Positions 7,514 through 36,284 of a stretch of DNA of 64,000 bases are shown in pieces. The translations under genes and the position numbers were made by a program. The notes below the pieces were generated by a model, which saw only the letters and a list, made by a program, of their open reading frames with translations, did not search any database and was not told where the DNA came from. The DNA is from Craterostigma plantagineum (taxonomy: Eukaryota > Streptophyta > Magnoliopsida > Lamiales > Linderniaceae). Position 1 is the stretch's first letter. Each line of letters begins with the position of its first letter. The stretch is from NCBI GenBank assembly GCA_027422505.1, contig JAPQWV010001606.1, positions 16,001 through 80,000 on the forward strand, in the 5' to 3' direction.

Positions 7514-7515
7514 AG

Positions 7516-10322: not shown

Positions 10323-10331
10323 CAATTCAGT

Positions 10332-12226: not shown

Positions 12227-12228
12227 AG

Positions 12229-12240
12229 TGGTATCAGAGC
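12229..12240 (+). other. A primer binding site (initiator-Met tRNA)
   Basis: TGGTATCAGAGC lies 2 bp after the LTR. It is a perfect match to the initiator-Met type primer site shared with D, B and C3. Confidence 0.95.
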
Positions 12241-13748: not shown

Positions 13749-16688
13749 ATGTCTACCACGAATGACATCTCCATAGTGGGCTCCGACACCAGGCCTCCGA
13801 TGCTGCGACAAGGCGACTACAGCATATGGACAAACCGGTTCCTCACGTTCATCAGGAACAAAGGCGCACCACTCTCTCAATACCTTCTGGACTCCATCTT
13901 CAACGGCCCAGCACAGTTCTGGACAACCATCCCTGCACAGCCAAACGCAGACCCTCCCATGGATGAACGCCGCACTCCAAGAGGTCCCATCAATGAGGAT
14001 GAACTGGCTCGTGCACAGGCCGACGAGACTGCCAAAGGATACCTCTTCCAGGCTTTTGGAAACGAGGTCTACGATCACGTTGAGTGCTGCACAACTGCTA
14101 AGGAGATATGGGATGAACTTGCAGAAATTATGGCAGGCACAACTGAAAGTGCACAGGCAAGGAAATCAGTATGTCTCTCGCAGTATGAACTCTTCCAGGC
14201 CTATGAAGGAGAGGAACTGCGTGACACATACCTCCGATACTTGAAGATCATCAATGAACTCAAGAAAGCCAGGATCTCGAGGGACAAATTCGATATCAAC
14301 AATCGCTTCCTTGGTAGCCTCAAACCACATTGGGGCAATGCAATCGTGATGATGATTCAGAGTAAGGACCTCTCCAACACTTCCATCCATGCTCTCTATG
14401 ACAGTTTGTCTGCCTATGCTCCTTACGTGCAACCTCAGTCCACCAACACTCGAGTCGACCCACTGGCACTCCTCTCGAACAAAACCAATGAACGATCTTC
14501 CACCACTAAGATCAAACAGAACAAAGGGAAGCTACCAGCTGTTGTATCTGACACCTCTTCAGGATCCGAAGCCGATACAGAATCAGATGAAGATGTTCGT
14601 GATATACGCAAGCAACTGACAATGCTCACTAAGTTGGTCTCAAAAAAGATCGGAAAAAAATCCTCATCCTCCTCCAATCGCCAAAGAACCTATAGCGGCA
14701 CCACAAAAACCACTCCCACAGAGGAAACTAAGCCGACAAAGAAAGCAGAGGACTCCGCACCTCAAAAGTCTGTGAAGTGCTTTCGGTGTGGAAAGACAGG
14801 CCACTTTGCCAAAGAATGCCACGCCCCACGCGTGAAGGACTCCGGGTACTACGACCGAAAGGCCAGAATGACCCGCAAGATGGAAAGTGGGAAAGCCCTA
14901 CTCACCGAAGAAGCTGAATGGGTGAATGACACTTCAGAAGACGAGGAGCCTAAGGATGAAGATTGCTGCATGGCAAGGCTGGTCGAACATGACGAGGACG
15001 AGGAGATGGGTCACACCGGTGAAAACACAGCTAAGACTCCTACCAACGCTGAGTCTGAGGTACGAATCTCGCAACTCGATGATGTGTTTAATCACCGACA
15101 CACCATTAAGAAACCCACCGTAGACGCTAGAGATTATGATGAACTTAGACTAAAATTTGAAAACAACTATGCCTTACTTAGTCTAAAAGTAGAAGAACTT
15201 GCTTGCGCAAACGAACGTCTAATGGCCTCTGAAGCGTTAGTCAAACGTCTGCAAAGTAAGAACAAACAAAGTGAGACTAAGGTTAAGGAATCTACACTAG
15301 CCATTAGTTCATGTGAAACTTCTCGCCTCCTGACGGCCGCCCAATATGAACTCCTTACGAAGGAAAGAATTAGACTATACCGCAAGGTGAAAGAACTTGA
15401 GGAGCAACTTCACCTTAGGAAAAAGGCAGCAAACATCTTATGTCTATTAAACCAACCAGTTGAAACCGAATTCTACGACGCCCGGATGGGAATCGGACTG
15501 GCCAGCAACTGCGATCCAACGCCGCTAATTGTCAAAAGGTATAACATGTACAGTACAGCATTCCTAAAAACGAGGAAAGGGACTCCCTCACAACTCATGC
15601 CATTTGTAAGATCCTCCTCTACTGTGCTGTCAGAAGAAAAGAGGAAACAGAACATACTTTGGGCAGAAATCGCATACGACTACACAGAACTGAATGCTAG
15701 TGATAAGACTAGAAAGCCCTCACTCTCTGAAGACATCAAATCTCAATTCCCAACCGAAGAACAGGAAATCGCTCTCCGAGAATCACTTTCTCGCATCTAT
15801 GTCCCAGAGAAACTTCTAGTCATAGCAGAACTAGAACGAACCATAGAAGTAGAGCGAAAAGCCTTTGCAAAAGAGCGAGAAGATCTAATTTACAAAATCT
15901 TTACCCTAGAACAATCTCATAATACGAATAAACCTTCTACGTCAAGTCAAGTACCCGACTCTCAAACATGTAAATGTAAGAGGACGGCGAAGATGACTCC
16001 TGAAGCCGACACATGTTCTAACACTAACTCTAGTATTCTTATGGATACAGGGAATGTGAGCTCGACGTCTCTGGAAGGGAGTTCGTACCAAATAAAGGAG
16101 AATCCGCTCTTCAATGACAAGAAGAAAAGCCCATCCTATATTCATTCTACCTCTCTATGTACTGAATCCCAATGTCCTAAGGTCGTAGACAATTATGGTA
16201 CCAAAACTCATCTTTCTTTTACCAAGCTTATGTCTATGTGCTGCTGCAATGAATTTGTCCTCCCACGCTTCCACGAATATGAAACACATGAACACGCAAC
16301 ACTCCGACCACGCAAGCGAACTTCATCTACGACGTCTTTGAATTCTCCCATCTCGCCTAAACCTAAGGTCAAGCGAAAACGCCTCTCGTCGTCAAACGCA
16401 AGCTCACCTACTACTCGCAAGCCAAAGGCGACCAAAACCGACGCACAAAAACGAAAACCACATTCCACACGCCATTTCATGTATAAGGCACCACACATGC
16501 AAGCACATATTAGGAAAATATGGGTTAGAAAAACCATAATCCCGCCTAATCAAACAAACGACAAAGGGAAAGCTAAATTAGAAACAACACAATCTGATTT
16601 ACAAAACACATTTCCCTTAAAGCGCATAAAAACTTTACATATATCACAAGAATGTCCCGTTTGTAAACGGGGACCCAACGTTTGCTAA
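13749..16688 (+). CDS. A Gag, extended Sirevirus type (979 aa)
   Basis: Open from an ATG at 13749 to TAA at 16688. About residues 15-220 form the copia Gag domain (GDYSIWTNRF; GPAQFW near 60; AKEIWDELAEIM near 120; NRFLGSLKPHW near 185). A Ser-rich acidic stretch follows. The zinc knuckle CFRCGKTGHFAKEC is at about residues 344-357. Residues 455-555 are coiled coil, and the tail is basic and Ser-rich, ending with paired cysteines (ECPVC, GPNVC). Gag assembles the cytoplasmic particle and binds genomic RNA. It is far longer than the roughly 300 aa of ordinary copia Gag, as is usual in Sireviruses. No frameshift is seen. Pol begins in another frame 4 bp later. Confidence 0.93.
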   Translation: MSTTNDISIVGSDTRPPMLRQGDYSIWTNRFLTFIRNKGAPLSQYLLDSIFNGPAQFWTTIPAQPNADPPMDERRTPRGPINEDELARAQADETAKGYLFQAFGNEVYDHVECCTTAKEIWDELAEIMAGTTESAQARKSVCLSQYELFQAYEGEELRDTYLRYLKIINELKKARISRDKFDINNRFLGSLKPHWGNAIVMMIQSKDLSNTSIHALYDSLSAYAPYVQPQSTNTRVDPLALLSNKTNERSSTTKIKQNKGKLPAVVSDTSSGSEADTESDEDVRDIRKQLTMLTKLVSKKIGKKSSSSSNRQRTYSGTTKTTPTEETKPTKKAEDSAPQKSVKCFRCGKTGHFAKECHAPRVKDSGYYDRKARMTRKMESGKALLTEEAEWVNDTSEDEEPKDEDCCMARLVEHDEDEEMGHTGENTAKTPTNAESEVRISQLDDVFNHRHTIKKPTVDARDYDELRLKFENNYALLSLKVEELACANERLMASEALVKRLQSKNKQSETKVKESTLAISSCETSRLLTAAQYELLTKERIRLYRKVKELEEQLHLRKKAANILCLLNQPVETEFYDARMGIGLASNCDPTPLIVKRYNMYSTAFLKTRKGTPSQLMPFVRSSSTVLSEEKRKQNILWAEIAYDYTELNASDKTRKPSLSEDIKSQFPTEEQEIALRESLSRIYVPEKLLVIAELERTIEVERKAFAKEREDLIYKIFTLEQSHNTNKPSTSSQVPDSQTCKCKRTAKMTPEADTCSNTNSSILMDTGNVSSTSLEGSSYQIKENPLFNDKKKSPSYIHSTSLCTESQCPKVVDNYGTKTHLSFTKLMSMCCCNEFVLPRFHEYETHEHATLRPRKRTSSTTSLNSPISPKPKVKRKRLSSSNASSPTTRKPKATKTDAQKRKPHSTRHFMYKAPHMQAHIRKIWVRKTIIPPNQTNDKGKAKLETTQSDLQNTFPLKRIKTLHISQECPVCKRGPNVC

Positions 16689-16699
16689 ATGTTTGCAGG
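16685..16699 (+). promoter_or_regulatory. A gag/pol boundary: stop, T-rich run, GCAG
   Basis: Gag stops at 16688 and TGTTTGCAG at 16690-16698 comes immediately before the pol reading GLSCVWYLDSGCS-type junction in another frame. The same order (Gag stop, pyrimidine run, GCAG, pol in a new frame) occurs in D (26377-26402) and B (minus, 39164-39145). It could be a 3' splice site that lets pol be expressed, or a recoding signal. Confidence 0.4.
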
Positions 16700-18332
16700 T
16701 CTGTCATGTGTGGTATCTAGACTCAGGTTGCTCCACACACATGACAGGGAATAAGGAGCTATTGAGCAACTTCACCGAGCGCTATCTCGGAAGGGTCTCC
16801 TTCGGAAACAGTCAAATGGCGCCGATTCTAGGAACTGGCGATCTCGTGCACGATAAACTGACAATCAAGGGCATCTCCTATGTCGAGGGTTTGAGCTACA
16901 ATCTCTTCAGCATTGGTCGATTCTGCGACAAAGGATACAAGGTTCTCTTCGAATCTGACATCTGCAGCATTATAGATGCCTCAGGACAATCTCTTCTTTC
17001 TGGAACGCGCACGTCCCACCTCTATGTACTCAACCTTACGACCTCTCGACCAATATGCCTTCTCTCTCGAGCCGCACCCAAGTTGAATGATTTATGGCAC
17101 CGACGTCTTTCACATCTCAATTTCAAGACCATCAACAAACTGCGTCAGAATAAACTCGTCAACGGTCTACCCCAACTGACATATCATAAGGAACAGCTCT
17201 GCTCTGCCTGTGAATTGGGAAAGATGAAGCGATCGTCTCATGTCTCTAAGGAAACACCGTCCTCTAAGCTCATCCTCGAGCTCTTACATATGGATCTATG
17301 TGGCCCAATGCCTACGGCCACACTCGGAGGAAGACGGTATATTCTGGTGATAGTCGACGATTTTTCACGCTACACGTGGACGAAACTCATTCGCACAAAG
17401 GATGAAGTTCCTGATATAATCATTGAGTTTGTTGTTACGTCCCAAACTCTTCATCGACAGAAGGTTCGGATTATCAGAACTGACAACGGAACTGAGTTTA
17501 AGAACAAAAGCTCAGTGATTTCTATGCCACTCAGGGCATCACTCAACAGTTCTCAGCTGTGAAGACACCGGAACAGAATGGTGTTGTTGAGCGCAAGAAC
17601 AGGACACTAGTTGAAGCAGCTAGGACTCTTCTCATACAATCCAGACTTCCTCATTCTCTTTGGGGCGAAGCTATTCAAACGGCTTGCTACACACAGAACC
17701 GGGCTTCCATCCACAAGAGATTCAACCGCACCCCATACGAGATGCTGAATAACCGTCGTATCCCCGATATATCTTATCTAAGGGCCTTCGGTTGCCGATG
17801 TTTTGTGGCCAATGATCGTCAACATCTTGGGAAGCTTGATCCAAAAGCTCTTGAAGGCATCTTTGTTGGATACTCACTAAACTCAAAGGCATACAGAGTC
17901 TATCTGAAGGAGAAACGGTCAGTAATAGAAAGCACGAATGTCACTTTTGACGAAAGCGAAGGCGATCTCACAGCTTCTGGCCATATCAGTCCAGAACCAG
18001 GTCTTCTACAGACGTTGACAAAAGGTCAACCTTCAACGGCGGGAACTTCCTCATCTGAGGGCAATTGTGGTGAACTAGATCTTGATCTGCTCTTCGAGTA
18101 CTTCTACCCAGTTCCTAGGACTCCCGTCGCCACCACTCAACCTACTGCTGCACCCACTCCACCTACACCACCAGCTACCGTCAATAACGTCATCCCTCCA
18201 AACTTGAATGCACTCAATCTCAACGAAGACGACATACTACCCAACCCTGGGAATATTGCTGACTCTGACGCAGAACCCTCTCAATTTAATACAATTGAGA
18301 TCTCTTCTTCGGACACCGGGCCCCCAACCTAA
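16693..18332 (+). pseudogene. A Pol, protease and integrase
   Basis: Protease active site YLDSGCSTHMTG is near 16715. The integrase HHCC zinc finger (LWHRRLSHLN near 17093; LCSACELGKM near 17200) is followed by the core with catalytic Asp in HMDLCGPM (17290), Asp in RTDNGTEF (17480) and Glu in NGVVERKNRT (17580). The C-terminal GKLDPKALEGIFVGYS block is near 17830. The product cleaves the polyprotein and joins element cDNA to host DNA in the nucleus. Two breaks are seen: one near 17505, where the frame changes beside an A run, and one near 18320 beside a G/C run. Both are at mononucleotide runs in a very young element, so they may be sequence errors. The linker after integrase (18060-18400) is Pro/Thr-rich. 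Confidence 0.9.
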
Positions 18333-19407
18333 TGAGTTTCAAATAGACACAAATGCGGCCAGCTCCTCACAAACCAACGTACCACTTTGGGCTCGCTCTC
18401 ACCCTACCAATCAGATTATTGGGGATCCCACATCCGGTGTTTCGACACGTTCGGCTACGATGAATGAAAGTTTGTTTGCTTGCTATCTCAGTCAAGTCGA
18501 ACCATCACGAGTAGCAGAAGCTCTCAACGATCCTGATTGGCTGATTGCAATGCAGGAGGAAATAAATCAGTTTGAACGCTTACAAGTTTGGGAACTCGTA
18601 CCACGACCTCACAATAGATCCATTATCGGCACAAAATGGATCTTTAAGAACAAAAAGGATGAAGATGGTGTTGTTATTCGCAATAAAGCAAGACTAGTGG
18701 CTAAGGGGTACAACCAACAAGAAGGGATCGACTACGATGAAACTTTCGCCCCAGTTGCCAGGATCGAAGCCATACGAATGTTCCTTGCCTTTGCTGCTCA
18801 CAAGAACTTCAAAGTCTACCAAATGGACGTAAAGACTGCATTTCTGAATGGATTTCTCAAAGAAGAAGTGTACGTTGATCAACCTGAAGGGTTCTTGAGC
18901 GAAGAGTTTCCTCATCACGTTTATCGACTCTACAAGGCCCTCTATGGACTAAAACAGGCTCCCCGAGCTTGGTATGACGTCCTTTCAGATTTCCTTGTTC
19001 AGTCTGGATTCAAGAAAGGATCTCTGGATACAACTCTCTTCACAAAGCGGAGTGACCCGGACATCATGATTGTACAGATTTATGTCGATGACATCATTTT
19101 TGGATCGACTAAACCTCAACTGTGCGAAGAGTTCGCAGAATTGATGAAAGAGAAATTCGAAATGAGTATGATGGGTGAACTGAATTTCTTTCTTGGTCTT
19201 CAAGTAAAGCAACTCCCCAACGGAATCTTCATCAATCAGTCCAAATACATCCATGACATCCTCGAGAAGTATGGAATGAAGGATGCTAAGACTGCTGCTA
19301 CACCTATGTCACCCTCTGGCCGACCCGACGCGGACCCATCTGGTGTTCCCGTTGACCAAACCGTTTTATCGAGGGATAATAGGATCTCTTCTGTACCTTA
19401 CTGCTAG
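18333..19407 (+). pseudogene. A Pol, reverse transcriptase
   Basis: Copia RT domain (RVT_2 type). It opens near 18520 ([20 protein letters not shown]), with GTKWIFKNK (18630), [20 protein letters not shown] (18690), [12 protein letters not shown] (18820, catalytic Asp) and the active site [10 protein letters not shown] (19081-19110). It copies genomic RNA to DNA in the particle. This frame is open from 18208 but begins 5' of the true join. It ends at a stop at 19407 after a frame change near 19365, again in a T run, and the RNase H portion continues in a third frame. All catalytic Asp residues are intact. Confidence 0.93.
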
Positions 19408-20029
19408 TCGACCGGATATCGTCCTCTCGACAGGAATCTGCGCTCGTTTTCAGGCCACACCAAAGGAATCCCATCTCACTGCTGTCAAAAGGATTCTCCG
19501 CTATCTCAAGGGAACATCCAATCTGGGTTTGTGGTACCCCACTCTATCGGACTTCAAATTGGTTGGATTCTCCGACTCGGATTATGCAGGATGCAAGATG
19601 GACCGAAAAAGCACCTCTGGAGCTGCACACTTCTTGGGCGGTAAACTCGTAAGTTGGTCGTCTCGAAAACAAAACTGTGTCTCAACTTCGTCGACGGAGG
19701 CAGAATATGTCGCCGCCGCTAGTTGCTGCTCACAGCTTTTGTGGATGAGAACCCAACTACGAGATTTTAATTTACATATTGATAAAATTCCCATCTATTG
19801 TGACTCAAAAAGTGCCATCGCGATGACGAGCAATCCTGTACATCACTCAAGAACAAAACACATAGATATTCGTCATCACTTCATCAAAGAACATGTCGAG
19901 CAAGGCACGATTGAGTTGCACTACATCACAACTGAAGATCAACTGGCCGACATTTTCACAAAACCGTTGGATGTCAAACGATTCCAACACCTAGTGACTA
20001 TGTTGGGTATGTTGAATATTCAGTTGTGA
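19370..20029 (+). pseudogene. A Pol, RT end and RNase H
   Basis: Continues RT as [18 protein letters not shown], then RNase H: DSDYAGCKMDRKSTSG (first Asp) near 19580, STEAEYVAAASCC (Glu) near 19690, YCDSKSAIAM (Asp) near 19800 and RTKHIDIRHHFIKE near 19850. It ends with LADIFTKPLD and TGA at 20029. It removes template RNA during cDNA synthesis. The domain is complete within one frame; the only defect is the frame offset from RT. Confidence 0.92.
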
Positions 20030-20118
20030 TCAATCGACCCTACATGAACTTTGATGAAATGTACATATTTCATTTTCACTTCACTTCATTGTCTATGTGT
20101 CTTCTGGATTATGTCTGT

Positions 20119-20248
20119 TGAGGGGGAGTTTTTAGATTAAGGGGGAGCGTCTGATATTTCATTATTTAAAACGGGAGTTTTTCGATTAAGGGGGAGCGTC
20201 TGATATTTCATTATTTAGAACGGGAAGTTTTACGATTAAGGGGGAGTC
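20119..20248 (+). repeat. A cluster of polypurine-tract-like AGGGGGAG copies
   Basis: Four AGGGGGAG-type tracts lie right after pol (20121, 20139, 20188 and 20239). The last three are carried by a roughly 50-bp direct repeat built on GATTAAGGGGGAGCGTCTG and TTTCATTATTTA. Multiple tracts far from the LTR are characteristic of Sireviruses; they could seed extra plus-strand starts. Confidence 0.8.
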
Positions 20249-21535
20249 AAAATCGGACCGATCAAAACATTTGGGGTGAATTTCAAATTTCAACCCAAAA
20301 TAAGTCAAAATTGGGTCCAAGTCCGCGAAATTCAGCTACGCTGAATTTTTAACCAAGCCCGCGAAATTTCGGCCCATTTACTCAAAAATTTCGCATGTAC
20401 AGTGTCTACAATCGTAAAACCCCAAAACCCTTAACGTTTTTCACTTTCCTAAAAATCCCGAGAAAATTCAAAAATTCGCAACCCCTCTTTCAAAAAATTC
20501 GCAACTCCCCGCATCTTCGTCATCGTCAAAATCTGCATTCAAACTTCGTTTCCTGCTAACTCCACCATCGCAAATCAGCTTTTCGGTATGAATACAACTT
20601 AAATAACCCAATTTCTGTTCGATTTTACCCTGTTTTGCCCGTTTTGATTAAACCTGCTTGGTTAGGGTTAAAACTTTCTCGGTTCTGAATCGAACGAATA
20701 TTAGGCTTTTAATGTTTAAATCCAACAAATATGTATTTCCCATCCTATTACGAGTCGATTGAGTCCAAATTATTGCATTTTGGTTAAGATTTGAGTAGGT
20801 CTAAGGCAAAAAATTGATTGCGCTGTCTCGCACTTTTTCAACTGTGTTCTTCACCGCGAAAAATTCTCAGAAAAATTGCTTTAATTGTTAAAATTCGCTG
20901 CTACAGTTAGATAGGCCCCGCGAAACTTTTATTTTACCCGAGAAAATTCTTGGACTACAGTGAGTGAGGTCTCGCGAAATTTTATCTGAGGAAGTTACAT
21001 ACGAGAATTTACATATGTTAAAATTTCGCTGCTACAGCAAGTGAACTCCCGCGAAAATTTCATATACTTCACTTCATAATCCAGATTTTCGCATTTTCAC
21101 TTTTCTCGCATCTACAGTGAACAAATTTTTTCAATCCGCGAAACTTCCATAACCTGCGAAGTTTTTCCTTAAGTGCGAAAATTCATTATATGCTGAGTGC
21201 GAAAATTTCATTACAGCTAGATGCATGCGAAAATTCACTCTGAATGAGAAAACACATCAACGTGCGAAATTTTCATTATATGCTAAGTGCGAATTTCCTT
21301 GAAACATGAGAAAATTCCTTGAAACAAAGATAAGTTGCGAATTTCTCCTCATTACCTACGAAAATTTTGACAACGTGCGAGATTTCTTAACTTGCGAAAA
21401 TTTTCCATACTTGCTAAATTTACGCAAAATGTGAAAATTTTCTTATATATAATCTTGGGCAATTCTATGTCTATTTTTATCATTTTCGTGACTTAGTCAG
21501 TACTAATCTTATTACGATTACTGTATAGCACAGAT
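20249..21535 (+). repeat. A second CGCGAAA motif array, between pol and downstream ORF
   Basis: No gene. From 20320 to 21420 the words CCGCGAAA, GTGCGAAAATT, GCGAAAATTTC and TACGAGAA recur dozens of times, mirroring the array in the leader. CTACAGTGA/CTACAGCAAG words are interspersed (20900-21120). The block may hold the promoter or leader of the downstream ORF, which starts at 21536. Confidence 0.7.
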
Positions 21536-22738
21536 ATGACTGACAAGGATCAAAATACACTTGAAGCACTTGAGGCGGCTGCCATTCAAAGAGAGGTTGC
21601 TCGCATCGAACTCCACACGCGCACTTATGTCCCACCACCCGAAGAGATCTTCCCACTAAGTCAATGGGCGGCCCTGATTCCCAACAACTATATGGTGGAC
21701 TTGAACAGTTTTCGGTGCGATGCCCCCGTTATCATAGAAATTCTCAAAGGGCACCCACTTCGCCACGCCCTCACTCATGGCGAACCAGAAGCACAGGTGT
21801 ACCTTCAACAATTCTGGCATACGCTGCAGATAGCTGGACCAATGCGCCTTGCCAAGACATTATCCGCCCATATCGATCAAGAAACGGTGGTCCTCACACC
21901 CAAAATACTCCAAGATGTTCTTCAACTCCCGGTCTACTCACCCTACGATCCACCACCAACACACGACCAACTCATTGAAGACATAGACAGACTGGGCTAT
22001 CAACCAGATACCAAGAAGAAGAAAGGCCCACTTGTCCTCAGTGAAGTCACCACCCGCAATCTACCACAACCCTGGCGGACACTGTACCTGCTGGTGAACA
22101 AGTGTATGTCAGGAAAACATGCTGGTCAGGACCGCGGAAACATTCAAATCCTCACAATCATGACCGGCATCGCTCACAACCGCAAATACAACTACGCCGA
22201 CATCATCTGGGTGGACCTAGTCTCAATGATCCAGCGACGCGACCGGGAAGTCGCCAAGGGAGTCCCGAACCGCTTCGTCCCATACATGCGATGGCTCCCA
22301 GCTCTGATCAAGCACTTCCGCCTGCACTCAACCAACATCCGCATCCGTCCGGCAGCAGAGCACTTCCAAATCCCAACTGTCGAGAAGTTCGCCAAGAAGA
22401 ACACACCGGCGAAGGATCGACACGCAATGGTGATTCCGGACGACGTGCTCGCCTACGCCGACCAGACCAACCCGCACGTCCAAGAATACCGAGCCTCAAC
22501 CGCATCCTTCCGTGAAACCCCGCACCCTCTCTCCACTGTCCCTACGGAGCAGATAAACCCCCCTGCTCCTAACCTCGGGACTAGCCAAACCCCCACCACC
22601 GCCACCAAAGAGTCATCAAGTCACGCCGCATCCTCTTCCACCCGCGTTCCGAAAAAACGGGCGCGTAAGGATGACGTAAGCCGTCCCACGGAGCGTCGAT
22701 CGAAACAAAACACGATCGACCTCCTCAGCCACAAATAA
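21536..22738 (+). CDS. A downstream ORF, N-terminal domain (400 aa)
   Basis: ATG at 21536 (MTDKDQNTLEALEAAAIQRE), stop at 22738. Conserved blocks shared with B (minus 34304-33317): SQWAALIPNN near residue 45, APVIIEILKGHPLRHAL near 65, VYLQQFWHTL near 90, PWRTLYLLVNKCMS near 180, a KYNYADIIWVDL block near 220 and PYMRWLPALIKHF near 250. The end is Ser/Thr-rich and basic. It sits where some Sireviruses carry an env-like gene, but I see no signal peptide or membrane segment, so a soluble intracellular protein seems more likely. The function is unknown. It is the first exon-like piece of a larger frame continued at 22771 after a frame change. Confidence 0.8.
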   Translation: MTDKDQNTLEALEAAAIQREVARIELHTRTYVPPPEEIFPLSQWAALIPNNYMVDLNSFRCDAPVIIEILKGHPLRHALTHGEPEAQVYLQQFWHTLQIAGPMRLAKTLSAHIDQETVVLTPKILQDVLQLPVYSPYDPPPTHDQLIEDIDRLGYQPDTKKKKGPLVLSEVTTRNLPQPWRTLYLLVNKCMSGKHAGQDRGNIQILTIMTGIAHNRKYNYADIIWVDLVSMIQRRDREVAKGVPNRFVPYMRWLPALIKHFRLHSTNIRIRPAAEHFQIPTVEKFAKKNTPAKDRHAMVIPDDVLAYADQTNPHVQEYRASTASFRETPHPLSTVPTEQINPPAPNLGTSQTPTTATKESSSHAASSSTRVPKKRARKDDVSRPTERRSKQNTIDLLSHK

Positions 22739-22770
22739 GCCGAGCCGAACCATTAGGTACAGGAGGTGAT

Positions 22771-23361
22771 GTGTTCACCTCCCGAGTAGAAGTCGTGGCA
22801 TCTGGCTCAACCACGCAAACGTCCCCACCAATCCACTTATCTTCCTCTCTACAGGAAGATATTTCATTGCACGAGGAGCCACTTATACCATCGACATCCC
22901 ACTTGGAGGTGATCGATGTTGAAACAAGCAGTCTCTCGCCTCAGACTGCATCCTCTTCAGGCACATCGAGTCTAGTGCCCTCACTCCCCATAATTTCTCC
23001 CATTTCTAGGACACATACACCTCTTACCGCACCACAGAGTCTTCGTGACTCTGTCAGAACGCTCGCTGATGTCTCTGTGACTGAGAGCGGAAGACCTAGC
23101 ACGGCCAACATCACAACAACCGTGAGCCTAGGCCATCATTCGATTGAGTCTGTCTCATCGACGATGCTAACGGGAAGTCTGAGTGACCCCGTCTTTTCCA
23201 GACCTGTGCAAACGGGCGGCCGATCGGCGATATTCACCGAGTCGGTGTCAGTTGGATTTCTCCGTGATTCCAACCTGGTTACTTTACCCCAATTCGTCAC
23301 CGAGACAGCGCTAGAGACACGTCTTCAAGAGTTTGCAAAGACTCTTGAGGCGTCAATTTAG
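22771..23361 (+). pseudogene. A downstream ORF, middle Ser/Thr-rich segment
   Basis: Continuation of the ORF in another frame. Low complexity overall, but with a conserved run: TSSLVPSLPIISPISRT near 22965, LRDSVRTLADVSV near 23040, ESGRPS and NITTTVSLGH near 23105. B carries the same order at minus 33010-32815, and D has a decayed version near 27720-27930. Then follow PVQTGGRS and LETRLQEFAKTLE (23305). Conservation of this order in three elements argues that the segment is part of the protein, not spacer. It ends at a TAG at 23361, possibly by a small indel. Confidence 0.65.
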
Positions 23362-24195
23362 ATAAAGTCTACGCGCATCTCGAAGCGTCCACGGTCGATA
23401 AAGGCAAAGGTGTGGCCCCGGAGACGCCACCACCAAAGCAAAATGAGGACGCAGAAGCTGTTCTCTCCTCCATTCCGCCAAGGAGCTCTTCTACATCCTC
23501 AGAGCTCGCTTCGAGTCAATGACGGAACTTGACGAGGAGGAACAGCAGATGAAGAAGATAATGACGCAACCATTGTCTTGCCGCGCTCAAGGCGAGACTA
23601 GCGGGATCAGGCGCGACGATCAAGACGATGATCAAGATCGCCGCGAGGGGGAGATAAATAGGCAGCTAGGCGCACAATCTCAAGGACTCATACAATCGAC
23701 GCCGATCTCCTCCTCTGGACCTGAAACGACACCCGCAACAGAAACCTCACACCCCACTAGCCAAAATCCCATCCCATTAACCCCGAGTCATTAACCAAAT
23801 CACCCTCACCACTACCCATCACCGTCTCCGAAACTCTAATCGTCACATCGGCGTTAGAGACCATCTCCACACCGTCTCCACCCACCAACACAAAACCTCT
23901 AACTGTCACATCGACATTAGAGGCCACCACCACATCTATACCACCCGTTACCCAAATCATCCTCGCCAAAACCATCTCATCAACTGAACCACCTGAATCT
24001 CCACCACAACCATCCCCACAATCCACAAACTCCTCCGAAACAACGCCCTCGCCACCACACAGCGACACTCCTCTCAACACCGACCCCAACATAGCTCCCG
24101 AGGACGTCTACTGCGCACAGAACGAGATCGAAGCCTACATCTTCAACGATGAATGGCTGTACACACCCGTCGATGCAGTAGCAGCCAGGAAGCTG
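23362..24195 (+). pseudogene. A downstream ORF, acidic and Thr/Pro-rich linker
   Basis: Partly open frame 23519-23794 with an acidic stretch (DDQDDDQDRREGE near 23620), then Thr/Pro-rich sequence to about 24100. B (DDPDGGDRPEGEK, minus near 32335) and C3 (DDPDDQDTHEGRRG, near 52965) have the same acidic then Thr/Pro/Gln-rich order. The frame is broken at least twice. A long minus-strand frame here (24092-23757) is a Gly/Val shadow of the repetitive codons. Confidence 0.55.
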
Positions 24196-25253
24196 GTGGA
24201 AAACGCTCGACGTCTGCTAATGGAAGCCTCACTAACGCTGATCAACACAGCAGACAACGAGGACGGAGAGGAGTACGACGCTGAACCGGCCGAGCTTGAG
24301 GACATCCTGCAATTCCAAGCGCAGCAAACTGAGGCCCCTGCTGCTCAAACGGATGCACCCACGGTGGATATACCGGAAGCACCGTGGGAAAACAAAAAGA
24401 TCACCGCACCGTTTCAAGAAGAGATCAGGAAGAGGATCTGGCGACGCAAGGAGCAGATCATCACCACCTTCGACGAGTATGAGCTGATGAACATCCAAAG
24501 TTGGAGCGAGAGAAAGAAGCAACTCTATCGATGGAGCCTTCTGTGCCACAAATGCACAAATAGGACGCTATCCGATGAGAAAAACATCGCTCAGGAAATG
24601 AGTCGGCCCCCATCTGCAAAGTCACTGACCTTCGCCAAGAATCCAAAGGACCTGTCCATTACCCAGTATTCACGGTAATGAGGCAAGATGAGAGCTACTG
24701 TGAAGTCAGTGAGGCGGACTTCAAGTTTCTGCGCCTGGGCGACCTGTACAGCATGCTGGAATCCATGAAGCAGTTCAGACTCGTCCTCAGAAGTTCTGGA
24801 CATCTCATACGTGCTGAACCGGTCACCATGGGATATGTGGCTATCAAACGCCACATGCTCCGACAGGTCAGATTCTTCGCCACCCATGATCTGCAGATGG
24901 CGGTGGAGCACAACCTAAAGAAGGTGAATCTGACTCGCCCATCTTTCAAAAACGCGGACGACTATCGAGAGGGCGATGTGATCGACGGAGACGATCCGGC
25001 GGTCGTCTACTCGAACTATAAGGGAAAGATGAGGATGCTGCGCTGCTCTGAAGTGGCAAAGTTCTCGGATGGAACGCTCACCATCATCCAAGACAAACTA
25101 ATGAAGATCTGCCGCATACTTTCAAGAGAAGATCCCCTCTGCCGATCCAAGTTCGCGAAGCTCATTGACGCTATAGCTGATAGAATGGTTCTTCGAAGGA
25201 ATCTCCGCGCCTTCGAGTTCAAGCTAGGGCTTCGCGAAACACTCACACGGTAA
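24196..25253 (+). pseudogene. A downstream ORF, C-terminal domain
   Basis: Two abutting frames, 24196-24678 and 24678-25253. The block starts before the first Met (IEAYIFNDEWL near 24130), then ARRLLMEASLTL, EDGEEYDAEPAELEDIL (24265-24310), PFQEEIRKRIWRRKEQ (24410), RHMLRQVRFFATHDLQMAVE (24850) and KVNLTRPSF. The C-terminal tail is a predicted helix with RMVLRRNLRAFEFKLGLRE near 25185. C3 and B have all these blocks. No known fold is recognised; it is charged, helical and lacks membrane segments. The frame change at 24678 is a one-base overlap of stop and start (TAATG), so either an indel or a translational coupling. It ends 48 bp before the final polypurine tract. Confidence 0.7.
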
Positions 25254-25300
25254 TCCACCATCCCAACGCCCAAGATTCAAGACTCCCAACAATTGACACA

Positions 25301-25311
25301 AAGGGGGAGAT
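25301..25311 (+). other. A polypurine tract at 3' LTR
   Basis: AAGGGGGAGAT immediately precedes the 3' LTR; it is the standard Sirevirus plus-strand primer. Confidence 0.92.
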
Positions 25312-25608
25312 TGTTAGGATATTTAATTGGTTGTGTCAATAGTTTAAGTCTTGGGATTAATTATGTAATTATCTTTAGCTTGGGCTTTGGACTAGATAGT
25401 AATTTTTGTATTATTAGTGATTGGGCCTTAATATACCTAGGGTTAATGTGGTATATAAGGTTTTACCAACTCACTTTGAATGGTAATCAAAGATAAAAAG
25501 GCTTACTCTTATTTTCACACACTACACACACTCAAAGGTGAGAAACTCTCCCTTCGTCATTCCATTTAGCCTCTTTGATTCCTTGTTTGGTGCATTTCGG
25601 GACCAACA
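25312..25608 (+). repeat. A 3' LTR
   Basis: 297 bp, identical to the 5' LTR except one base I can find. It is followed by the GATAC duplication and the rest of D gag. Confidence 0.95.
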
Positions 25609-26389
25609 GATACTTTGAACTCTGAAAGGATAGGTTTTGGCGCTGAAAAGGAAAAGCTTTTAAAGGAGATTTTATATCTCAAAAGTTCCCCGTCTTTATC
25701 TGTTTCAAATGATTTGTCAAATAATACATCTGCTCAAAACAGGTAAAGAAAACAAAAACTAAAAGAAGCATCCTTGTTCCTAAAACTGAGAAGGCATTAC
25801 TAATCATTCTAAGTCAATATTGACTGAAGCTGAAACGTTAAGTAAAAGCAAAGCGCTAAAAATAGCTAAAGAACAAATAAAGATTAGGACAAGGAAAATC
25901 AATATTATCTTCGAAAAATACAAATCGAAAATGTTCAAAGATTTTTTCTCTGCCATTCCTATCAAAAGTCAGCGTGCAAAGAAGAAGCTCCAAGCTTAAG
26001 CAAACGAACTTCTCAAATCTCGCACAATCATCATTATAAAGTAAATGATGTGAACTCTCGTAGGCAGTGTGACTCATCATCTAATGACGCATATAGCGCC
26101 ATAAGCTCATATTCCTACTTGCAATATCCAGTCCAAATTCATTCTAGAAAGCATCTTATGCGACTGGCTAGAAGAAAATCTTTAGGTCTTCTACACCTAG
26201 GCACACAATCACCGGCGCTGAATTGTCATTTCCCTCTAAGGTTCACCAAACTTGGATTCCTAAATAGCAAATCAAATTGAATAGGACTGAAAAGGATGAG
26301 ATATGATCAATATTTGAACCAAATGTGCTTAAACCGTTTTCTGCTAACAAGGGAGGACCCATCCAAAATGGGTACCAAAGTCTCGGTAA
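25609..26389 (+). pseudogene. D gag, continuation after A
   Basis: Resumes the D Gag frame after A (TLNSERIGFGAEKEKLLKEI), matching the segment of A and B Gag that follows the coiled coil. An in-frame stop occurs near 25745 and the remainder to 26389 is frameshifted. The tail still shows the basic region and the WVPK-type ending (near 26368) that closes B Gag before its stop. Confidence 0.65.
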
Positions 26390-26545
26390 TTTGTTTTTGC
26401 AGAATCCCAGCATGGGTGGGTACTGAGAGAGCTGCTCCACACTCACGACTGGTATGCCACGAGAGCAGCCAAACATCCCAGCGTGTATGGTATCTTGGGT
26501 TGCTCCACATACACGACTGGTAAGCGATGCGAGCAACTACGTAGG
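26390..26545 (+). pseudogene. D pol, protease start only, with local duplication
   Basis: After a T-rich run ending GCAG (26402), pol begins with a degraded protease site: VWYLG-CSTYTTG near 26488-26522, where A has VWYLDSGCSTHMTG. The Asp-Ser pair is lost. A related copy of the same stretch sits about 70 bp upstream (26404-26475), so the site is tandemly duplicated. Everything downstream in pol (integrase, RT, RNase H) is missing. Confidence 0.65.
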
Positions 26546-26935
26546 TAAATTCTATATGCATCCCATGAGAAACATGGCATGCATCTTGAGCTGAAAAGAC
26601 AATATACCTACTTTGAAAAAAATAGGGTACATTATAAACATGGATGAATCAAATGTACTTTAAAATGTTAAATTTTCGCATGCATATGAGTTGAAATGTC
26701 TAATACACCATGATAGGTACATTTTAACTATGCATATATCTTAAAGAACTTTGAGCTTAAACATTCACGTATGCATAAAGCTGAATTGTCAAAAATACCT
26801 ATTTTTTCGGAGCGATAAAAAGTGAAAAACGTATGGAATTTTTAAAGAATAATAATTTTTTAGTTTGCATCTGCTCCGAAAAGAAAATACGTTACGCTTA
26901 TTTAATTGGAGAGAACTTACATGTTTAAACGTGCA
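26546..26935 (+). other. D AT-rich remnant with GCATGCATATGAGTTGAAATG repeats
   Basis: No gene. Three or four degenerate copies of a word built on ATGCAT-GAGCTGAAA (near 26568, 26683, 26733 and 26772), alternating with AGGTACATT words. This takes the place of pol. Confidence 0.45.
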
Positions 26936-27149
26936 TGCGTTGAGGGGGAGTATCACTCCACAGTTACGAGGGGAGAGTATATTTTTAGGTGGAGTACATC
27001 TTAGGTCCAAGATTTGAGAGGGAGAAACTTAATTTAACCCATATACATATATGTATACATATACTTATATATTACTATTACGATAATACATATATACGTA
27101 TATCTATATATATATATATATATAAAGGAAAAGAAAATCAAAAAAAATT
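26936..27149 (+). repeat. D polypurine-tract cluster and AT microsatellite
   Basis: GAGGGGGAG at 26942-26950, GAGGGGAGAG near 26973 and GAGAGGGAG near 27016 repeat the Sirevirus post-pol tract cluster. A (TA)n/(ATAC)n microsatellite fills 27040-27125. Confidence 0.6.
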
Positions 27150-28735
27150 ATGAAAACAAAAAAAAAAAAGAAAAACCCTCTCCGGCGCTTCCATATCCCA
27201 AGACGGACTTCAACTAAAAACAAGCAGCCCTCGAGAACTCAAGAATTTCAAAAAGGTGAAGGTGACATCCTCACACTAACACGACACCAATTGACCTGCT
27301 CCGACTTGCTGATCAAGCAGCACTTACCAAAATTGACGGACGCATGGATTCTAAGTTCCCATGGTTCAGTCAAACCAAACTGAACCTAACCCTGGAACGT
27401 AGCCGAGTGTTAGTGACGGTTTCAAGCTCGTAAAAGTCGCATCCCTAGTTTGGCAATTCATGATAAGACCAAAGAGCGGAATATACAAAATTCCCTTAGC
27501 TCACAAATTACTCGGGCCATCCCATATAGGTGCAGGAGCTGATTGTTATCAGCTCCCGGGTAGAATTCGCCTCATTTGGTCCAACGGCGCATGCACAACC
27601 GAGCATTACCCATTCATCGATCTCCCTAAAGACTGATGTTTCATCAAATCACGGGGAGCCACGCATGCTATCACGCTTCACTTGGAAGCGGGAGATATTG
27701 AATTAAGTGGTAGTTAGCCCCACACCACAGAACTTCTTGAACACATCGAGTCTAGGTGTCCTCACTACCTAAATGTTTTATAATTTTTAGGACACATACA
27801 CTTTTTCTTATCTGGACTTCATGACCAGATCAGAACTTCCATAGACACGTCTGTAGTAGATGCGATTCCAAGATTGGAAGGAAGTCCTACCGTTGCAACA
27901 TCAAAACAACAATGGCATCAGGCCATCGTCTGCAAGCTACGCTCCTAGATCGATGTTAACGGAACGCATATGTGGCTCCGTTTCTAAGCCCTGTCCTCAC
28001 AGACCGCGTCTCAGAATTTAACTCTGAACTCGTATAGATGGATTGCCTTAGTGGCTCGTCCGATTATTACCTACACCGACCTGTCGTTTGTGTATTTCTT
28101 CGACTCCTATATAAGCATGCCTGACTCGTTAACACGAATCGCCATGAGGGGGAGAAGGGGACACGTATAAACAAACAGGTCGGCTCACCCACCAACTTCC
28201 AGTCGCGCGTACCACTATGAAGTCGGGCTCTCGTGCACTCAAACGTCAATTCAGAAGGAGTCTTGGCACATTTATAACACATCCCACGCTCACCATAAAT
28301 ATTCCACCGCGGTTACCAAGATGAAGCTGAACCCACTAGAACCTACAATGTCACATTCCAAAGGAGCTTTGGCACATGTTAAAAGACACCCCACACATAT
28401 CTTCTTATGGAGCCAGACAAGCTTCCTCGAGGCCGAACCAGAAAACTTCCTTCGACAAAGACGAATCTGGCACCGAGAAGAAGACTGGAGAAAACTTGAC
28501 GACTTCAAAGTACAGAAAAAGACAAGAACAAGATGAAACAAAATTTCAAAGATCTGCGACATCATCAAGAAACGACTATCGAGGCGTGGATCATAGCATA
28601 CATCCGATCTACAATGTATAGCGTCAAGACAAGAGAGTTCTAGCTGATAGTTCATTCAAATCCTCCACAAGAAGAGGAGACAACCTTTGCAGGGGGAGCA
28701 AGGGGAGATTGTTAGGACTCGAGAGATTCTCCATG
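27150..28735 (+). pseudogene. D downstream ORF, decayed
   Basis: Nucleotide similarity to the downstream ORF of A is visible in blocks. 27530-27690 resembles A 22755-22920 (a gap-free stretch around CAGCTCCCGGGTAGAA). 27730-27990 follows the A order of the SSLVPS...SRT, VSV and LGH segments in broken frames. 28140-28160 resembles the acidic Glu/Gly stretch. No frame of useful length remains. It shows that the extra ORF was already present in the ancestor of D. Confidence 0.6.
28690..28722 (+). other. D internal decoy: polypurine tract followed by LTR-like start
   Basis: GGGGAGATTGTTAGGACTC reproduces the junction polypurine tract plus TGTTAGGA LTR start about 75 bp before the true one at 28779-28796. 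The sequence beyond it does not continue as LTR. Confidence 0.45.
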
Positions 28736-28777
28736 TGCCCAACAAAGATAACCCGCGCTGAATCGAAGATTGAACAC

Positions 28778-28788
28778 TAAGGGGGAGA
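28778..28788 (+). other. D polypurine tract at 3' LTR
   Basis: TAAGGGGGAGA directly precedes TGTTAGGAAT. Confidence 0.88.
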
Positions 28789-29117
28789 TGTTAGGAATAT
28801 TTTATAATGTTCAATTTCAATGTGTTTATCTTAGTTTGCTTGCATTTAATTAACTTTGAGCTAGTTCATAATATTCTAGTTCTTAGTTGGGGTATGATAT
28901 ACCAACTAATGTGGTATATATACCCCCAAACCCTATTCATTAGGGTGTGTGTTTTTGGTGTAGTATGTGTGAGTGCGTCTGTGTTGAACAGTAAAGAACC
29001 CATTTTGAAAGCATTCATAGTCTACACTATCACACCCCACGTTCAATCTTTAAATCTTTAGTATTAGCGTGGTAAACCGTCGTAGGTCAGTATTGTTGGA
29101 TCAAATAGGGACCAACA
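28789..29117 (+). repeat. D 3' LTR
   Basis: 329 bp, pair of 7183-7513 with about 30 differences and a few indels by eye, followed by the CAGTG target duplication. Confidence 0.92.
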
Positions 29118-30575: not shown

Positions 30576-30884
30576 TGTTGGCCCTTATATTACCAAACAA
30601 GGATCAAAAGAAGGGTTTGAATGTATTAAACGTGAAGAACACCTTGAGTGTGTGTGTTAGTGTGTGTTTTCTTAATCTAACGTGCAAGGTGGCTTACCTT
30701 TCAATTCTTTTGATAAAACCCTAATTAGGGTAATTTGGGCTTTATATACCACAATTGTTTGGTATATTAAAGCCCAATACAAAACTATGACTTAATATCA
30801 TAAGTCACCCCAAACTATTACAACCCACTAAATAAAACATATTAACCCAATATTACACAAATCAAAGGATGCTAATTCCTAACA
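30576..30884 (-). repeat. B 3' LTR
   Basis: 309 bp, direct repeat of 43030-43344. On the minus strand it begins TGTTAGGAATTAGC and ends GGGCCAACA. Confidence 0.94.
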
Positions 30885-30894
30885 AACTCCCCTT
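30885..30894 (-). other. B polypurine tract at 3' LTR
   Basis: AAGGGGAGTT on the minus strand abuts the LTR start. Confidence 0.85.
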
Positions 30895-32149
30895 AGCATC
30901 CTTTTCGCTTTGGCGTCCTTTGTGTCTTCTTCTTCTTGGGTTTCTCCACTGCATCAATCGATTTCCTGAGTCCAAGTCTGAACTCGTATGATCGTATCAT
31001 TCTTCGCAAGGATAATCGATCGGAGATGATGTTTATCAGCTTCTCGTACTTTTCCTGGACTTCTGCTTCTTCGTGCCTTAGCTCCTCCAAAATCCTTTCG
31101 AGTTTCACCCGAACAATCAGCAGCGTCCCATCGCTGAATTTGGCAATCTCGGATGTTTCATCAGCCTCTTTTCTCCCTTGTAATTGATGTAGACCAATGG
31201 ATCGTTGTTATCATTGATTATGTGGCCTTCACCGAGACTTGAGTCGGGGACTTCGAAGGATGGCTTCGTGAGATTCACCTTTTCATGTTGCTTTCCACCG
31301 CCATTTGAAGATCGTTAGTCGAATTGAACTTGATTTGGCGCATCATGAACCGCTTTAGAGCAACGTAGCCCACTTTCAAGTCTGGATTCTGGAGTGTCCA
31401 AGAAATCTGAAGCTTATAAGTATCGATCAACATCTTCACCTCTGATGTAGGAGAGATCGCCTTCAGTCAGTTCCTCGACCGTTCCATCTTCTCGCTGCAC
31501 CTTATAGATAGGGTATTCATAAAAGTCGACACGACCTCGCCGAACTCCCAAGATTTTGTTGATCTGGCCTTTTCCTTCTCTTCTCTTCTAAGAATGTTAA
31601 CATCTGTATCTTTTGCTCTCCACACAAGCCCTCTACGAAGAGAGAGCAGGTATCGTATAGCAGTTGGTCTCGGGAGATGAGTTAGGCCTCTTAGACTCAG
31701 CTCGTCTAGCTCCTTGATACTATCTTCCTTCCTCCAAATTCTTCTCCGTATCTCTTCTTGATATGGAGCTATCACTTTGAAATTTTCCCACGGCGGCTTC
31801 TGTTCTTTTCCTTTCTTCGACTTCGAGGGGGAGCACTCTTATCGACGACAGCGTGTTTGAGAAGCTCTGGAAGTTCTGGAATGTCTGCTTCGTAGTCTTC
31901 GCCTTCCTCGAGCTCATCATCGTCGATAAGTGCTAGGTCAACATTTGCCTTCATCAAGAAATATCTGGCGTTGTCCAGTAAGCCCTTGGCCAAGGCTGGA
32001 TGCATCGGCTTTGTTAACCAATCGTCGTTGAAGATGTACTTTTCTACCGCTGAGTGTGGGTTGTAAAGTGTTTCGAGAGATAGAATATGTGAGGATGGAG
32101 GATCAGAGGAAGGTCTTGGGTTTGTAAGGCTAGGCGGTGATGGACTCAC
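30893..32149 (-). pseudogene. B downstream ORF, C-terminal domain
   Basis: Homologous block by block to A 24100-25253, in pieces. 32149-31772 carries AVEKYIFNDDWL, then ARYFLMKANVDLALID and EEGEDYEADIPELPELL. 31775-31467 carries APYQEEIRRRIWRKED. Broken sequence near 31300 has KVNLTKPSFE. 31108-30893 carries DRLSLRRMIRSYEFRLGLRK followed by a lysine-rich tail (KPKKKKTQRTPKRK) that looks like a nuclear localisation signal. At least four frame breaks. No membrane segment. The final basic tail is stronger than in A or C3. Confidence 0.7.
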
Positions 32150-33316
32150 GGTTGATGAGGAGGTCGTTTGGGTTGTATTGGTAGTAGTTCGGGTAGATTT
32201 TCTGGTTTGGGTGGGTGTAGGTGATTTTGTTCTGGTGGGTGTTTGGGTGGTTCTAGGTTGCGGCTGTGGCTGCGGCGGAGGCCCTGTCCCTTGTGTCTTC
32301 TCCCCCTCGGGACGATCCCCACCGTCAGGGTCGTCACGTGATTGTCTTGATGACTGGGCCTCGCCGGGTTAGGCGGGTTGAAAGGAAGTTCCAGACGTCT
32401 GAAGACCTCCGCTTCATAGGCAGTGAGCGTCGGTGCAGTACGGAGTCTGGCCAGAGAACGTCAATCAGTTCCGGGATTGGTACGTTCTACGGTCCTTCCT
32501 TAGAGCCAGGAGTTGTGTTGGGTTGCGTGGGTACTTCTTCGTTGACGGGGGCTTTGCCTTTATCCCGAGAGGATGTCCCAATGGCATTGTAGACTTGGGT
32601 CATAATAGTATCCTCGAGATCTTTCGCCAATGTTACGAGTCGATTCTCTAGCCTCGCCTCCGTCACGAACGGGGAAAATAACCTGACGGAGTCACTAAGA
32701 CGTTCCGTCGTCACAACATCAGTAGAGGGTACTGATGTGCTGCCCGTTTGCACAGGACTTGAAAAACCGAGGCCACGAAGGCTCATCGTTGACATCAAAG
32801 CTGAGACTGACTCAGATATGGCCCAAGGTCGTAGCTACAGTGATGTTGACTACGTTGGGTCTTCCGCTCTGTTCCGTACTAGACTCTAGTACGGAGACAT
32901 CGTAGAGCGTTCGGTCTAGATCACGAAGATCTAGAGGTGCAGAATCTAATCGTAGTGTCCTAGAAAGTGGAAAAATTATGGATGGTGAGGGCACTAGACT
33001 CGTAGTGATCAAAGAAGGTGCAGTCTGAGGCGGAGTACTGCTTGTTACATCAACCACCTCCGAGCGAGGTGGTGATGAATGACGTGGCACCTCGTGAGTA
33101 TGTGAAACAATCATCTGTTGGAGATGATTGAGTGGCTCGGAAGGGTAGTTTGCGCGATTGGACCCGATGTCGCGACTTCTACTCGGGGGAAGACAGTCAT
33201 CCCCTGTACCTATGGGCTCGGTCCAGATTATAAGTGGACTAGTTGGCTTAGGAGTACGGTCGTGTTTTTTCTTTGTACGCCGTTCCTGTTGTCTTCCTCG
33301 GTCATCCCCTTTGGAT
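32150..33316 (-). pseudogene. B downstream ORF, middle and linker
   Basis: Frames 33114-32812 and 32798-32487 carry the conserved Ser/Thr segment (TTSLVPSPSIIFPLSRT; DLRDLDRTLYDVSV; NITVATTLGHI) and then LENRLVTLAKDLED, in the same order as A 22965-23340. 32360-32150 is the acidic (DDPDGGDRPEGEK) then Pro/Thr/Gln-rich linker. Plus-strand frames here, rich in Gly, Val and Trp, are antisense shadows. Confidence 0.65.
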
Positions 33317-35694: not shown

Positions 35695-35782
35695 TAATAG
35701 TAGGATTTTTACCATTCATAACATATAGAGAAAAATTAAATGATCTATTTACACAATATCAGGTTCATGTAGGGACAATCGA

Positions 35783-36280: not shown

Positions 36281-36284
36281 AGAC

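What the first reader, a model, noticed from the sequence alone, without database searches (positions are those of the whole stretch)
21536..25253. One large extra ORF downstream of pol, shared by four Sirevirus copies of at least three families
A (21536-25253), B (minus 34304-30893), C3 (52632-54517) and the wreck of D (27150-28735) share the same block order after pol: N domain (PWRTL-L-VNKC; RWLP-VI-HF), a conserved Ser/Thr segment (SLVPS-II-P-SRT), acidic DD-rich stretch, Thr/Pro linker, and a C domain (YIF---W; EDYE; LRR---FEF-LGLR-type end). LTRs of these families are unlike one another, so conservation of the protein over that divergence suggests selection. It occupies the place of the Sirevirus env-like gene, yet I see no signal peptide or membrane segment, and B ends in a lysine-rich tail like a nuclear signal. 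A nuclear or RNA/DNA-binding accessory protein is a reasonable alternative to an envelope.
Basis: partly seen in the sequence, partly recalled or inferred. Interest (0 to 1): 0.82.

Follow-up and report, generated by a model that had tools for sequence, protein, structure and literature searches.

The report
Structured RNA inside retrotransposon accessory gene
A common plant jumping element carries an extra gene for a probably nuclear protein, and one stretch of that gene also folds into a conserved RNA shape that looks like a signal the element needs to copy itself.

Summary
The extra ORF is real. Window copies A and B are broken into several frames, but intact natural copies (A about 1240 aa, 20 fetched; B about 1137 aa, 11 used) exist elsewhere in this 1.71-Gb plant genome, colinear and about 40% identical. 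C3 holds only the C half; D detectably only the middle segment. It belongs to a known class, the 3' extra ORFs of SIRE-lineage Copia elements. N and C domains are under purifying selection (median dN/dS 0.09-0.18). Hydropathy shows no membrane segment or signal peptide; basic NLS-like clusters are present.

The main result lies outside the finding. The 'conserved Ser/Thr segment' is conserved as nucleic acid: codon periodicity is lost and it folds as an RNA of 75 pairs in 11 helices, 98.2% of cells paired, 101 double-change cells against 36 in shuffles and 2-12 when slid. Covariance models find it in A, B, D and all 32 A/B loci searched, not in C. Window D, without detectable pol or N domain, keeps LTRs, PBS, PPT and this RNA. 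Best reading: a cis-acting genomic-RNA signal nested in an accessory gene. The structure is well supported; its role is inferred.

The parts
11930..25608 (+). Element A: LTRs 11930-12226 and 25312-25608 (99.7% identical), 5-bp repeat GATAC on both sides
12229..12240 (+). Primer binding site string TGGTATCAGAGC of A
   Evidence: read; naming from PMC2829016 passages and recall
12227..13748 (+). Leader of A with 7 CGCGAAA motifs
13749..16688 (+). gag of A (Copia-type gag, CCHC zinc knuckle)
16689..20029 (+). pol region of A (RVT_2), broken over several frames
20030..21535 (+). Linker before the extra ORF: four AGGGGGAG octamers (20121, 20140, 20189, 20239) and 7 CGCGAAA motifs
21536..25253 (+). 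Extra ORF, copy A, broken over six pieces in three frames
21632..22510 (+). N domain (residues 33-325 of the intact protein), faint likeness to Transposase_32
22634..22720 (+). Basic NLS-like cluster
22760..23140 (+). Core of the structured RNA: 11 helices, 75 pairs; further weaker helices to about 23256
24097..25250 (+). C half (residues 856-1240), with a chromo/Tudor-like module suggested near residues 1028-1090
25302..25309 (+). Terminal polypurine octamer AGGGGGAG, starting 10 bp before the 3' LTR
30576..43346 (-). Element B, minus strand; about 310-bp LTRs (96.5% identical)
30893..34304 (-). Extra ORF, copy B, broken
32818..33204 (-). Structured RNA in B
7183..29117 (+). Element D (LTRs about 90% identical, CAGTG on both sides) with A nested inside it; no pol found in its interior
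27533..27930 (+). Structured RNA in D (64 of 71 ungapped pairs formed)
53028..54517 (+). C-half pieces of the extra ORF in element C

Best explanation
The gene is the 3' extra ORF of SIRE-lineage (Sirevirus) Copia elements. It encodes a soluble accessory protein: an N domain, a basic NLS-like cluster, a long disordered linker and a C half (shown: coding, selection, no membrane segment by hydropathy; inferred: nuclear, chromatin contact through a small chromo/Tudor-like module). The linker-coding stretch doubles as a structured RNA of about 380 nt (shown by covariation in three families). Most likely this RNA is a cis-acting recognition signal of the element's genomic RNA, bound by Gag or by the extra protein, for packaging, dimerisation or trafficking (inferred). 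The extra ORF is probably driven or regulated from its own upstream linker, which repeats the motif of the leader (inferred).
For: Selection: median dN/dS 0.130 (N) and 0.093 (C) in A, 0.095 and 0.184 in B, 0.54-0.74 in linkers. RNA: 75 pairs, 98.2% of 811 cells paired, 101 double-change cells against 36.2 in 500 shuffles and 2-12 slid; A against B 21 pairs changed on both sides and 2 broken, A against D 17 and 7; alifold z -9.8 against 0.1 to -5.5 in four control segments; G-U 27 against A-C 6 cells; found in 32 of 32 A/B loci, 24 of them not used for the model, and 0 of 13 control loci; found in L077-L082, also not used for it. Cis role: window D and copy L084 show a late-gag fragment but no pol in the stretch seen, and D keeps LTRs, PBS, PPT and the RNA. 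Motif shared by leader and linker: 7 and 7 in A, 7 and 13 in B, not reached in 300 simulations each.
Against: No experiment. Three lineages only, so the double changes are many pairs but few independent lineages. The antisense strand also folds far better than shuffles, with a lower consensus energy (-116.9 against -101.2). One sequence folded alone is only moderately stable (z -2.5). Low four-fold variation also occurs elsewhere, notably in B's Thr/Pro linker (4 of 41 sites) and in single windows of A (241-320, 1081-1120), so low synonymous variation alone is not specific. Copy L083 has pol-like pieces upstream of its RNA, in an order unlike pol, and cannot tell whether its family lacks pol. 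L077-L079 carry an N-domain stretch after the RNA. Chromo/Tudor and Transposase_32 likeness are at noise level or just above.
Confidence: 0.5

Rival explanations
1. The RNA is an export element comparable in place to the HIV Rev response element (inside the env-position gene), and the extra protein with its basic cluster is its partner that takes unspliced element RNA out of the nucleus.
For: Structured RNA inside the env-position gene and NLS-like basic clusters in the protein of that gene. The analogy itself is recalled.
Against: No splicing, export or binding data. Window D keeps the RNA without detectable protein domains, though the protein could act in trans.
Confidence: 0.2
2. The RNA controls translation or makes the C half separately (reinitiation, internal entry or splicing), which would fit element C having only the C half.
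For: The RNA lies between the two folded parts; C3 shows only C-half pieces.
Against: No start codon or splice signal was tested. D keeps the RNA although no C-half protein was detected by search.
Confidence: 0.12
3. The RNA stabilises element transcripts, as the ENE does in the Arabidopsis Copia element Evade.
For: A structured RNA in a plant Copia element is reported to raise RNA stability and new insertions (PMC12501189, passages).
Against: That ENE lies in the 3' UTR and has U-rich internal loops; this RNA lies inside an ORF and I see no such loops in the predicted structure. No Rfam family reached its cut-off.
Confidence: 0.08
4. The ORF is an ordinary envelope-like gene and the middle segment is young through recombination among families, without RNA function.
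For: Position between pol and the 3' LTR in sense. Exchange of segments could lower synonymous difference. PMC3414828 (passages) says Sirevirus ENV-like genes share transmembrane and coiled-coil domains.
Against: No membrane segment by hydropathy. A younger segment does not explain 21 compensated pairs against 2 broken at 32% divergence, nor slid controls of 32-43% paired.
Confidence: 0.04

Closest known systems
eORF-3'F of the SIRE lineage (Neumann et al. 2019, PMC6317226; passages read)
   Same: Extra ORF in sense between pol and 3' LTR of SIRE elements; reported in 74% of them, in 19 groups with little or no mutual similarity, function unknown.
   Different: Which of those groups this is was not compared. 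No embedded RNA is mentioned in the passages I saw.
Sirevirus ENV-like gene (SIRE1 and others; PMC3414828, PMC2829016, passages)
   Same: Place in the element; repeats upstream of the gene.
   Different: No membrane segment by hydropathy here. A spacer of about 1.5 kb separates pol from the ORF, unlike SIRE1, where a stop codon separates them (PMC2829016, passages). No sequence comparison with SIRE1 ENV was made.
Transposase_32 (PF20167), reported in an Athila extra ORF of sunflower (PMC11728184, passages)
   Same: Colinear faint likeness to the N domain.
   Different: Below Pfam's cut-off by far; no direct hit for A or B proteins.
HIV Rev response element (recalled)
   Same: Large structured RNA nested in the env-position gene.
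   Different: No Rev, no binding or export data.
ENE of Evade (PMC12501189, passages)
   Same: Structured RNA in a plant Copia element.
   Different: 3' UTR, U-rich loops, triple helix with poly(A).

Membership tests
Sirevirus / SIRE lineage | Copia-type gag and reverse transcriptase, CCHC knuckle | tested here: met
   Element A: PF14223 E 1.4e-12, PF00098 E 2.5e-5, RVT_2 E 1.3e-78
Sirevirus / SIRE lineage | AGGGGGAG octamer starting 10 bp before the 3' LTR | tested here: met
   Met in A. Not exact in B (AAGGGGAG) nor in C; in D it starts 9 bp before
Sirevirus / SIRE lineage | Several identical octamers in the linker | tested here: met
   Four in A and four in B after pol; one in C. They lie before the extra ORF, whereas PMC2829016 reports most after it
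Sirevirus / SIRE lineage | Repeated motif in LTR and in linker upstream of the ENV-like gene | tested here: inconclusive
   Present in linker and leader, absent from the LTR in A
Sirevirus / SIRE lineage | Place in a reverse-transcriptase tree | not tested
   No reference tree was made
Sirevirus ENV-like protein | Transmembrane segment | tested here: not met
   Hydropathy only, four proteins: best 19-residue mean 0.93-1.46
Sirevirus ENV-like protein | Coiled coil | not tested
   No predictor was run
Sirevirus ENV-like protein | Sense ORF between pol and 3' LTR | tested here: met
Transposase_32 (PF20167) | Score above Pfam's cut-off | tested here: not met
   No hit for the intact A protein up to E 10 nor for the window's N-domain pieces of A and B; Cuscuta relative 12.4 bits against a cut-off of 45
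Transposase_32 (PF20167) | Profile-profile similarity | tested here: inconclusive
   hhalign score 25.7 against at most 21.2 in 100 column shuffles and 13.5 reversed, but probability only 5.7%
Chromo / Tudor (Royal) fold | Three strands and a helix matching solved members | tested here: inconclusive
Known RNA families (Rfam 15) | Match at the family's gathering score | tested here: not met
   20000-25700 scanned; one sub-threshold hit at 22652-22725, minus strand, outside the core
Rev response element-like | Bound by the element's own protein and exports RNA | not testable with these tools
   Needs an experiment

The most novel reading that the evidence does not exclude
A cis-acting genomic-RNA signal of Sireviruses lives inside the coding sequence of their 'env-like' gene. 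The linker protein there is a by-product of the RNA, and the extra protein is the nuclear partner of that RNA. A pol-less family rides on autonomous relatives by keeping the signal. The long-debated env-like genes of plants would then be RNA-plus-nuclear-protein modules rather than envelopes.
Probability: 0.3. Interest if true: 0.88.

Novelty: new variant of a known kind. Interest (0 to 1): 0.74.

Why it matters
What the extra genes of plant Sireviruses do is unproven, and 'envelope' remains a guess (PMC3414828 and PMC6317226, passages). Here the gene separates into two selected protein parts and an embedded RNA whose pairs are kept through compensatory change in three families. That gives concrete handles: probe the RNA, ask what binds it, localise the protein. 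It also warns that conservation inside such ORFs need not mean protein function.

Tried and rejected
Considered and rejected. Overlapping reading frame as the cause of the lost codon periodicity: in the eight copies listed no other frame stays open across residues 401-560. Pfam DUF7487 for the C domain: hits in 6 of 8 Tanacetum relatives scanned, best E 2.3e-6 in one and 0.0036-0.021 in the others, but none in this genome at E 0.001 while one bacterial control genome has it; taken as chance likeness. Antisense structure: G-U against A-C counts favour the sense strand, although antisense folds well too. L077/L078 as the normal D order (RNA before N domain): L079 shares that arrangement at 99.6%, while L080, L082 and window D continue differently, so it looks like a rearranged subgroup.

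Weak or without result. N-domain model mean pLDDT 51.4, not searched further. C-domain model 68.9: no Foldseek hit at E 0.001 in PDB or the viral library. No PDB sequence hit for the whole protein, for profile A6 or for one B piece. PMD (PF10536) is abundant in this genome; no profile comparison was made. Profile searches gave 788 (N) and 2694 (C) proteins with 120 listed each, all 240 from Tanacetum; taxa among the unlisted were not seen. These profiles held Tanacetum pieces, and the N profile a Cuscuta piece, so the link from family A to them rests.

Selections. dN/dS used the 20 A copies that, of the 101 scored, had an open frame of at least 1229 aa and no stop in the match, and 11 of 12 fetched B copies (L041 dropped because its longest frame was another one; L043 kept although shorter). 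Choosing intact copies biases against broken ones. The RNA structure was derived from the same alignment on which pairs were counted. Window A, B and D were in the training sets of R1 and R2. B's leader and linker limits in the motif test were set by eye. In one search one measure, further pair types, was below all shuffles (46 against 54.2).
Full report
Setting. The window lies in a plant genome of 1.71 Gb that is held without a name. Element A is 11930-25608: 297-bp LTRs 99.7% identical, GATAC on both sides, the string TGGTATCAGAGC after the 5' LTR and the octamer AGGGGGAG starting 10 bp before the 3' LTR, with four more octamers after pol. It sits inside an older element D (7183-29117, LTRs 90.3% identical, CAGTG on both sides). 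A D-family copy elsewhere, L084, runs through the place where A is inserted. These features match the Sirevirus description in PMC2829016 (passages); in B the terminal octamer is inexact, and C was not examined for membership beyond the octamer count.

The ORF. In the window it is broken in A and in B. Of 101 scored A-type places, 20 had a frame of at least 1229 aa with no stop in the match; all 20 were fetched and read as open frames. Of 150 scored B-type places 12 were fetched and 11 used. A and B proteins align from end to end; segments are 37-43% identical to A. The intact A protein has no Pfam hit up to E 10, no NCBIfam hit and no PDB sequence hit up to E 1. A single-sequence search gave three relatives: one in Cuscuta europaea (E 3.5e-34) and two in Tanacetum (E 1.6e-9, 3.4e-4). 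The better Tanacetum protein matches in both the N and the C part, so the plan is shared by plants of different families. Neumann et al. 2019 (PMC6317226, passages) report such ORFs in 74% of SIRE elements, in 19 groups with little or no mutual similarity. The gene is therefore a known class of unknown function.

Protein. Pairwise Nei-Gojobori counts give median dN/dS of 0.130 (N) and 0.093 (C) in A, 0.095 and 0.184 in B, and 0.54-0.74 in the linkers; pairs with dS above 0.02 only; A against B is saturated in N and C. Hydropathy finds no membrane segment in four proteins; basic clusters lie after the N domain in A and B and at the C end of B. The N domain resembles Transposase_32 at the edge of detection. 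The C half is predicted at mean pLDDT 68.9 with three strands and a helix in its best part. Chromodomain, chromo shadow and Tudor matches are weak and outranked by unrelated rows; I use them only as a hint.

Loss of codon structure. Over residues 401-560 the three codon positions differ about equally: 0.015-0.061 in A and 0.017-0.081 in B, while third positions differ by 0.108 and 0.117 in the N and C domains of A and 0.184 and 0.093 in those of B. Amino-acid change there is not lower than in the domains. Four-fold sites that vary: 11 of 93 in residues 405-600 against 91 of 241 in N+C for A (Fisher p 1.5e-6), 15 of 98 against 85 of 214 for B (p 1.3e-5). B's Thr/Pro linker is also low (4 of 41), A's is not (16 of 54). 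So a low synonymous rate is not unique to this segment; the pairing evidence below is what singles it out.

The structured RNA. RNAalifold on five A and five B copies gives -106.4 kcal/mol, z -9.8 in 30 shuffles, against z -3.5, -5.5, 0.1 and -2.9 for four other stretches of the same ORF. One A copy folded alone has z -2.48, with 1 of 100 shuffles as stable. The larger alignment A7 gives 103 pairs, 36 with a double change. On the core alignment A8 (13 rows, 11 distinct), 75 pairs in 11 helices: 98.2% of 811 cells pair; 31 pairs and 101 cells show a double change, against 19.4 and 36.2 in 500 shuffles, none of which reached them; slid structures give 32-43% paired and 2-12 such cells. A against B: 47 pairs same, 3 changed on one side, 21 on both, 2 broken. 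A against D: 41, 6, 17, 7. B against D: 37, 6, 17, 9. Paired and unpaired sites diverge alike between A and B (0.32 each), so pairing is kept by compensation and not by frozen sequence. G-U cells outnumber A-C cells 27 to 6, which points to the sense strand, though the antisense consensus also folds well. Models R1 and R2 find A, B and D in the window, all three in the training sets, with the next hits at E 0.24 and 1.9. R1 finds all 32 A/B loci, 24 of them not used to build it, and none of 13 Transposase_32 loci; it also finds D-family copies not used to build it (L077 and L078, and 4 of 4 of L079-L082). No Rfam family reaches its cut-off.

Element D. A 401-bp piece of D finds 39 other places at 95-97% identity among the 40 listed. 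Gag and pol frames of A, B and C against D's interior give one real hit, to late gag (E 4e-9), and no pol; the same queries against B reach E 1e-128. L084 shows the same gag fragment and no pol in the stretch fetched, with an unmatched insert of about 1.5 kb. L083 matches D only near its end and has pol-like pieces upstream in an order unlike pol; it cannot tell. A family that keeps LTRs, PBS, PPT and this RNA without pol is what one expects of a cis-acting signal used in trans; this rests on two copies.

Regulation. CGCGAAA (both strands) occurs 7 times in A's leader and 7 times in the linker before the extra ORF, once in the extra ORF and never in LTR, gag or pol. In B another motif (AGTTTCG) occurs 7 and 13 times. 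The best shared 7-mer in 300 simulations was 6 for A and 5 for B; gag against pol and A-leader against B-linker give 3. PMC2829016 describes family-specific repeats in LTRs and upstream of ENV (passages); here they are in the leader instead of the LTR.

Literature. Eight searches list no paper that I recognise as describing a structured RNA inside a Sirevirus extra ORF; the library is open-access only and I judged by listings and abstracts. Of PMC7264820 I read part 1 of 3 and passages; of PMC11728184, PMC3414828, PMC2829016, PMC6890757, PMC12501189, PMC3599292 and PMC6317226 passages only.

Verdict. Observation partly confirmed, interpretation partly supported. The better description is a SIRE extra ORF with two selected protein parts and a covarying RNA nested between them. 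The RNA structure is the firm part. Its role, the nuclear location and the fold hints are inference.

Noticed in passing
window 8069-10322: Inverted ends (8069-8192 against 10197-10322, 79.5%) around a stretch whose translation looked to me like a Mutator-type transposase (read by eye): probably a DNA transposon inside element D.
   Followed up: no
window 12689-12976 and 20323-21143: TTTCGCGG, which fits the plant E2F consensus (recalled), occurs 6 times in the leader and 6 times in the linker of A; TTTSSCGS has 24 matches in the window against 11.4 expected. The extra ORF may have an S-phase-type promoter.
   Followed up: partly
L016: An otherwise open A-family copy whose extra ORF is 1389 aa, with an internal duplication in the linker.
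   Followed up: no
L077, L078, L079: D-family subgroup, 99.6-99.7% identical, in which the RNA is followed by an N-domain coding stretch instead of D's usual continuation.
   Followed up: partly
window 47333-47794 and 59583-61208: Tandem repeats of 42 bp (inside element C) and of about 539 bp.
   Followed up: no
whole genome G000: Transposase_32 and PMD domains are both abundant, many in long open frames.
   Followed up: no
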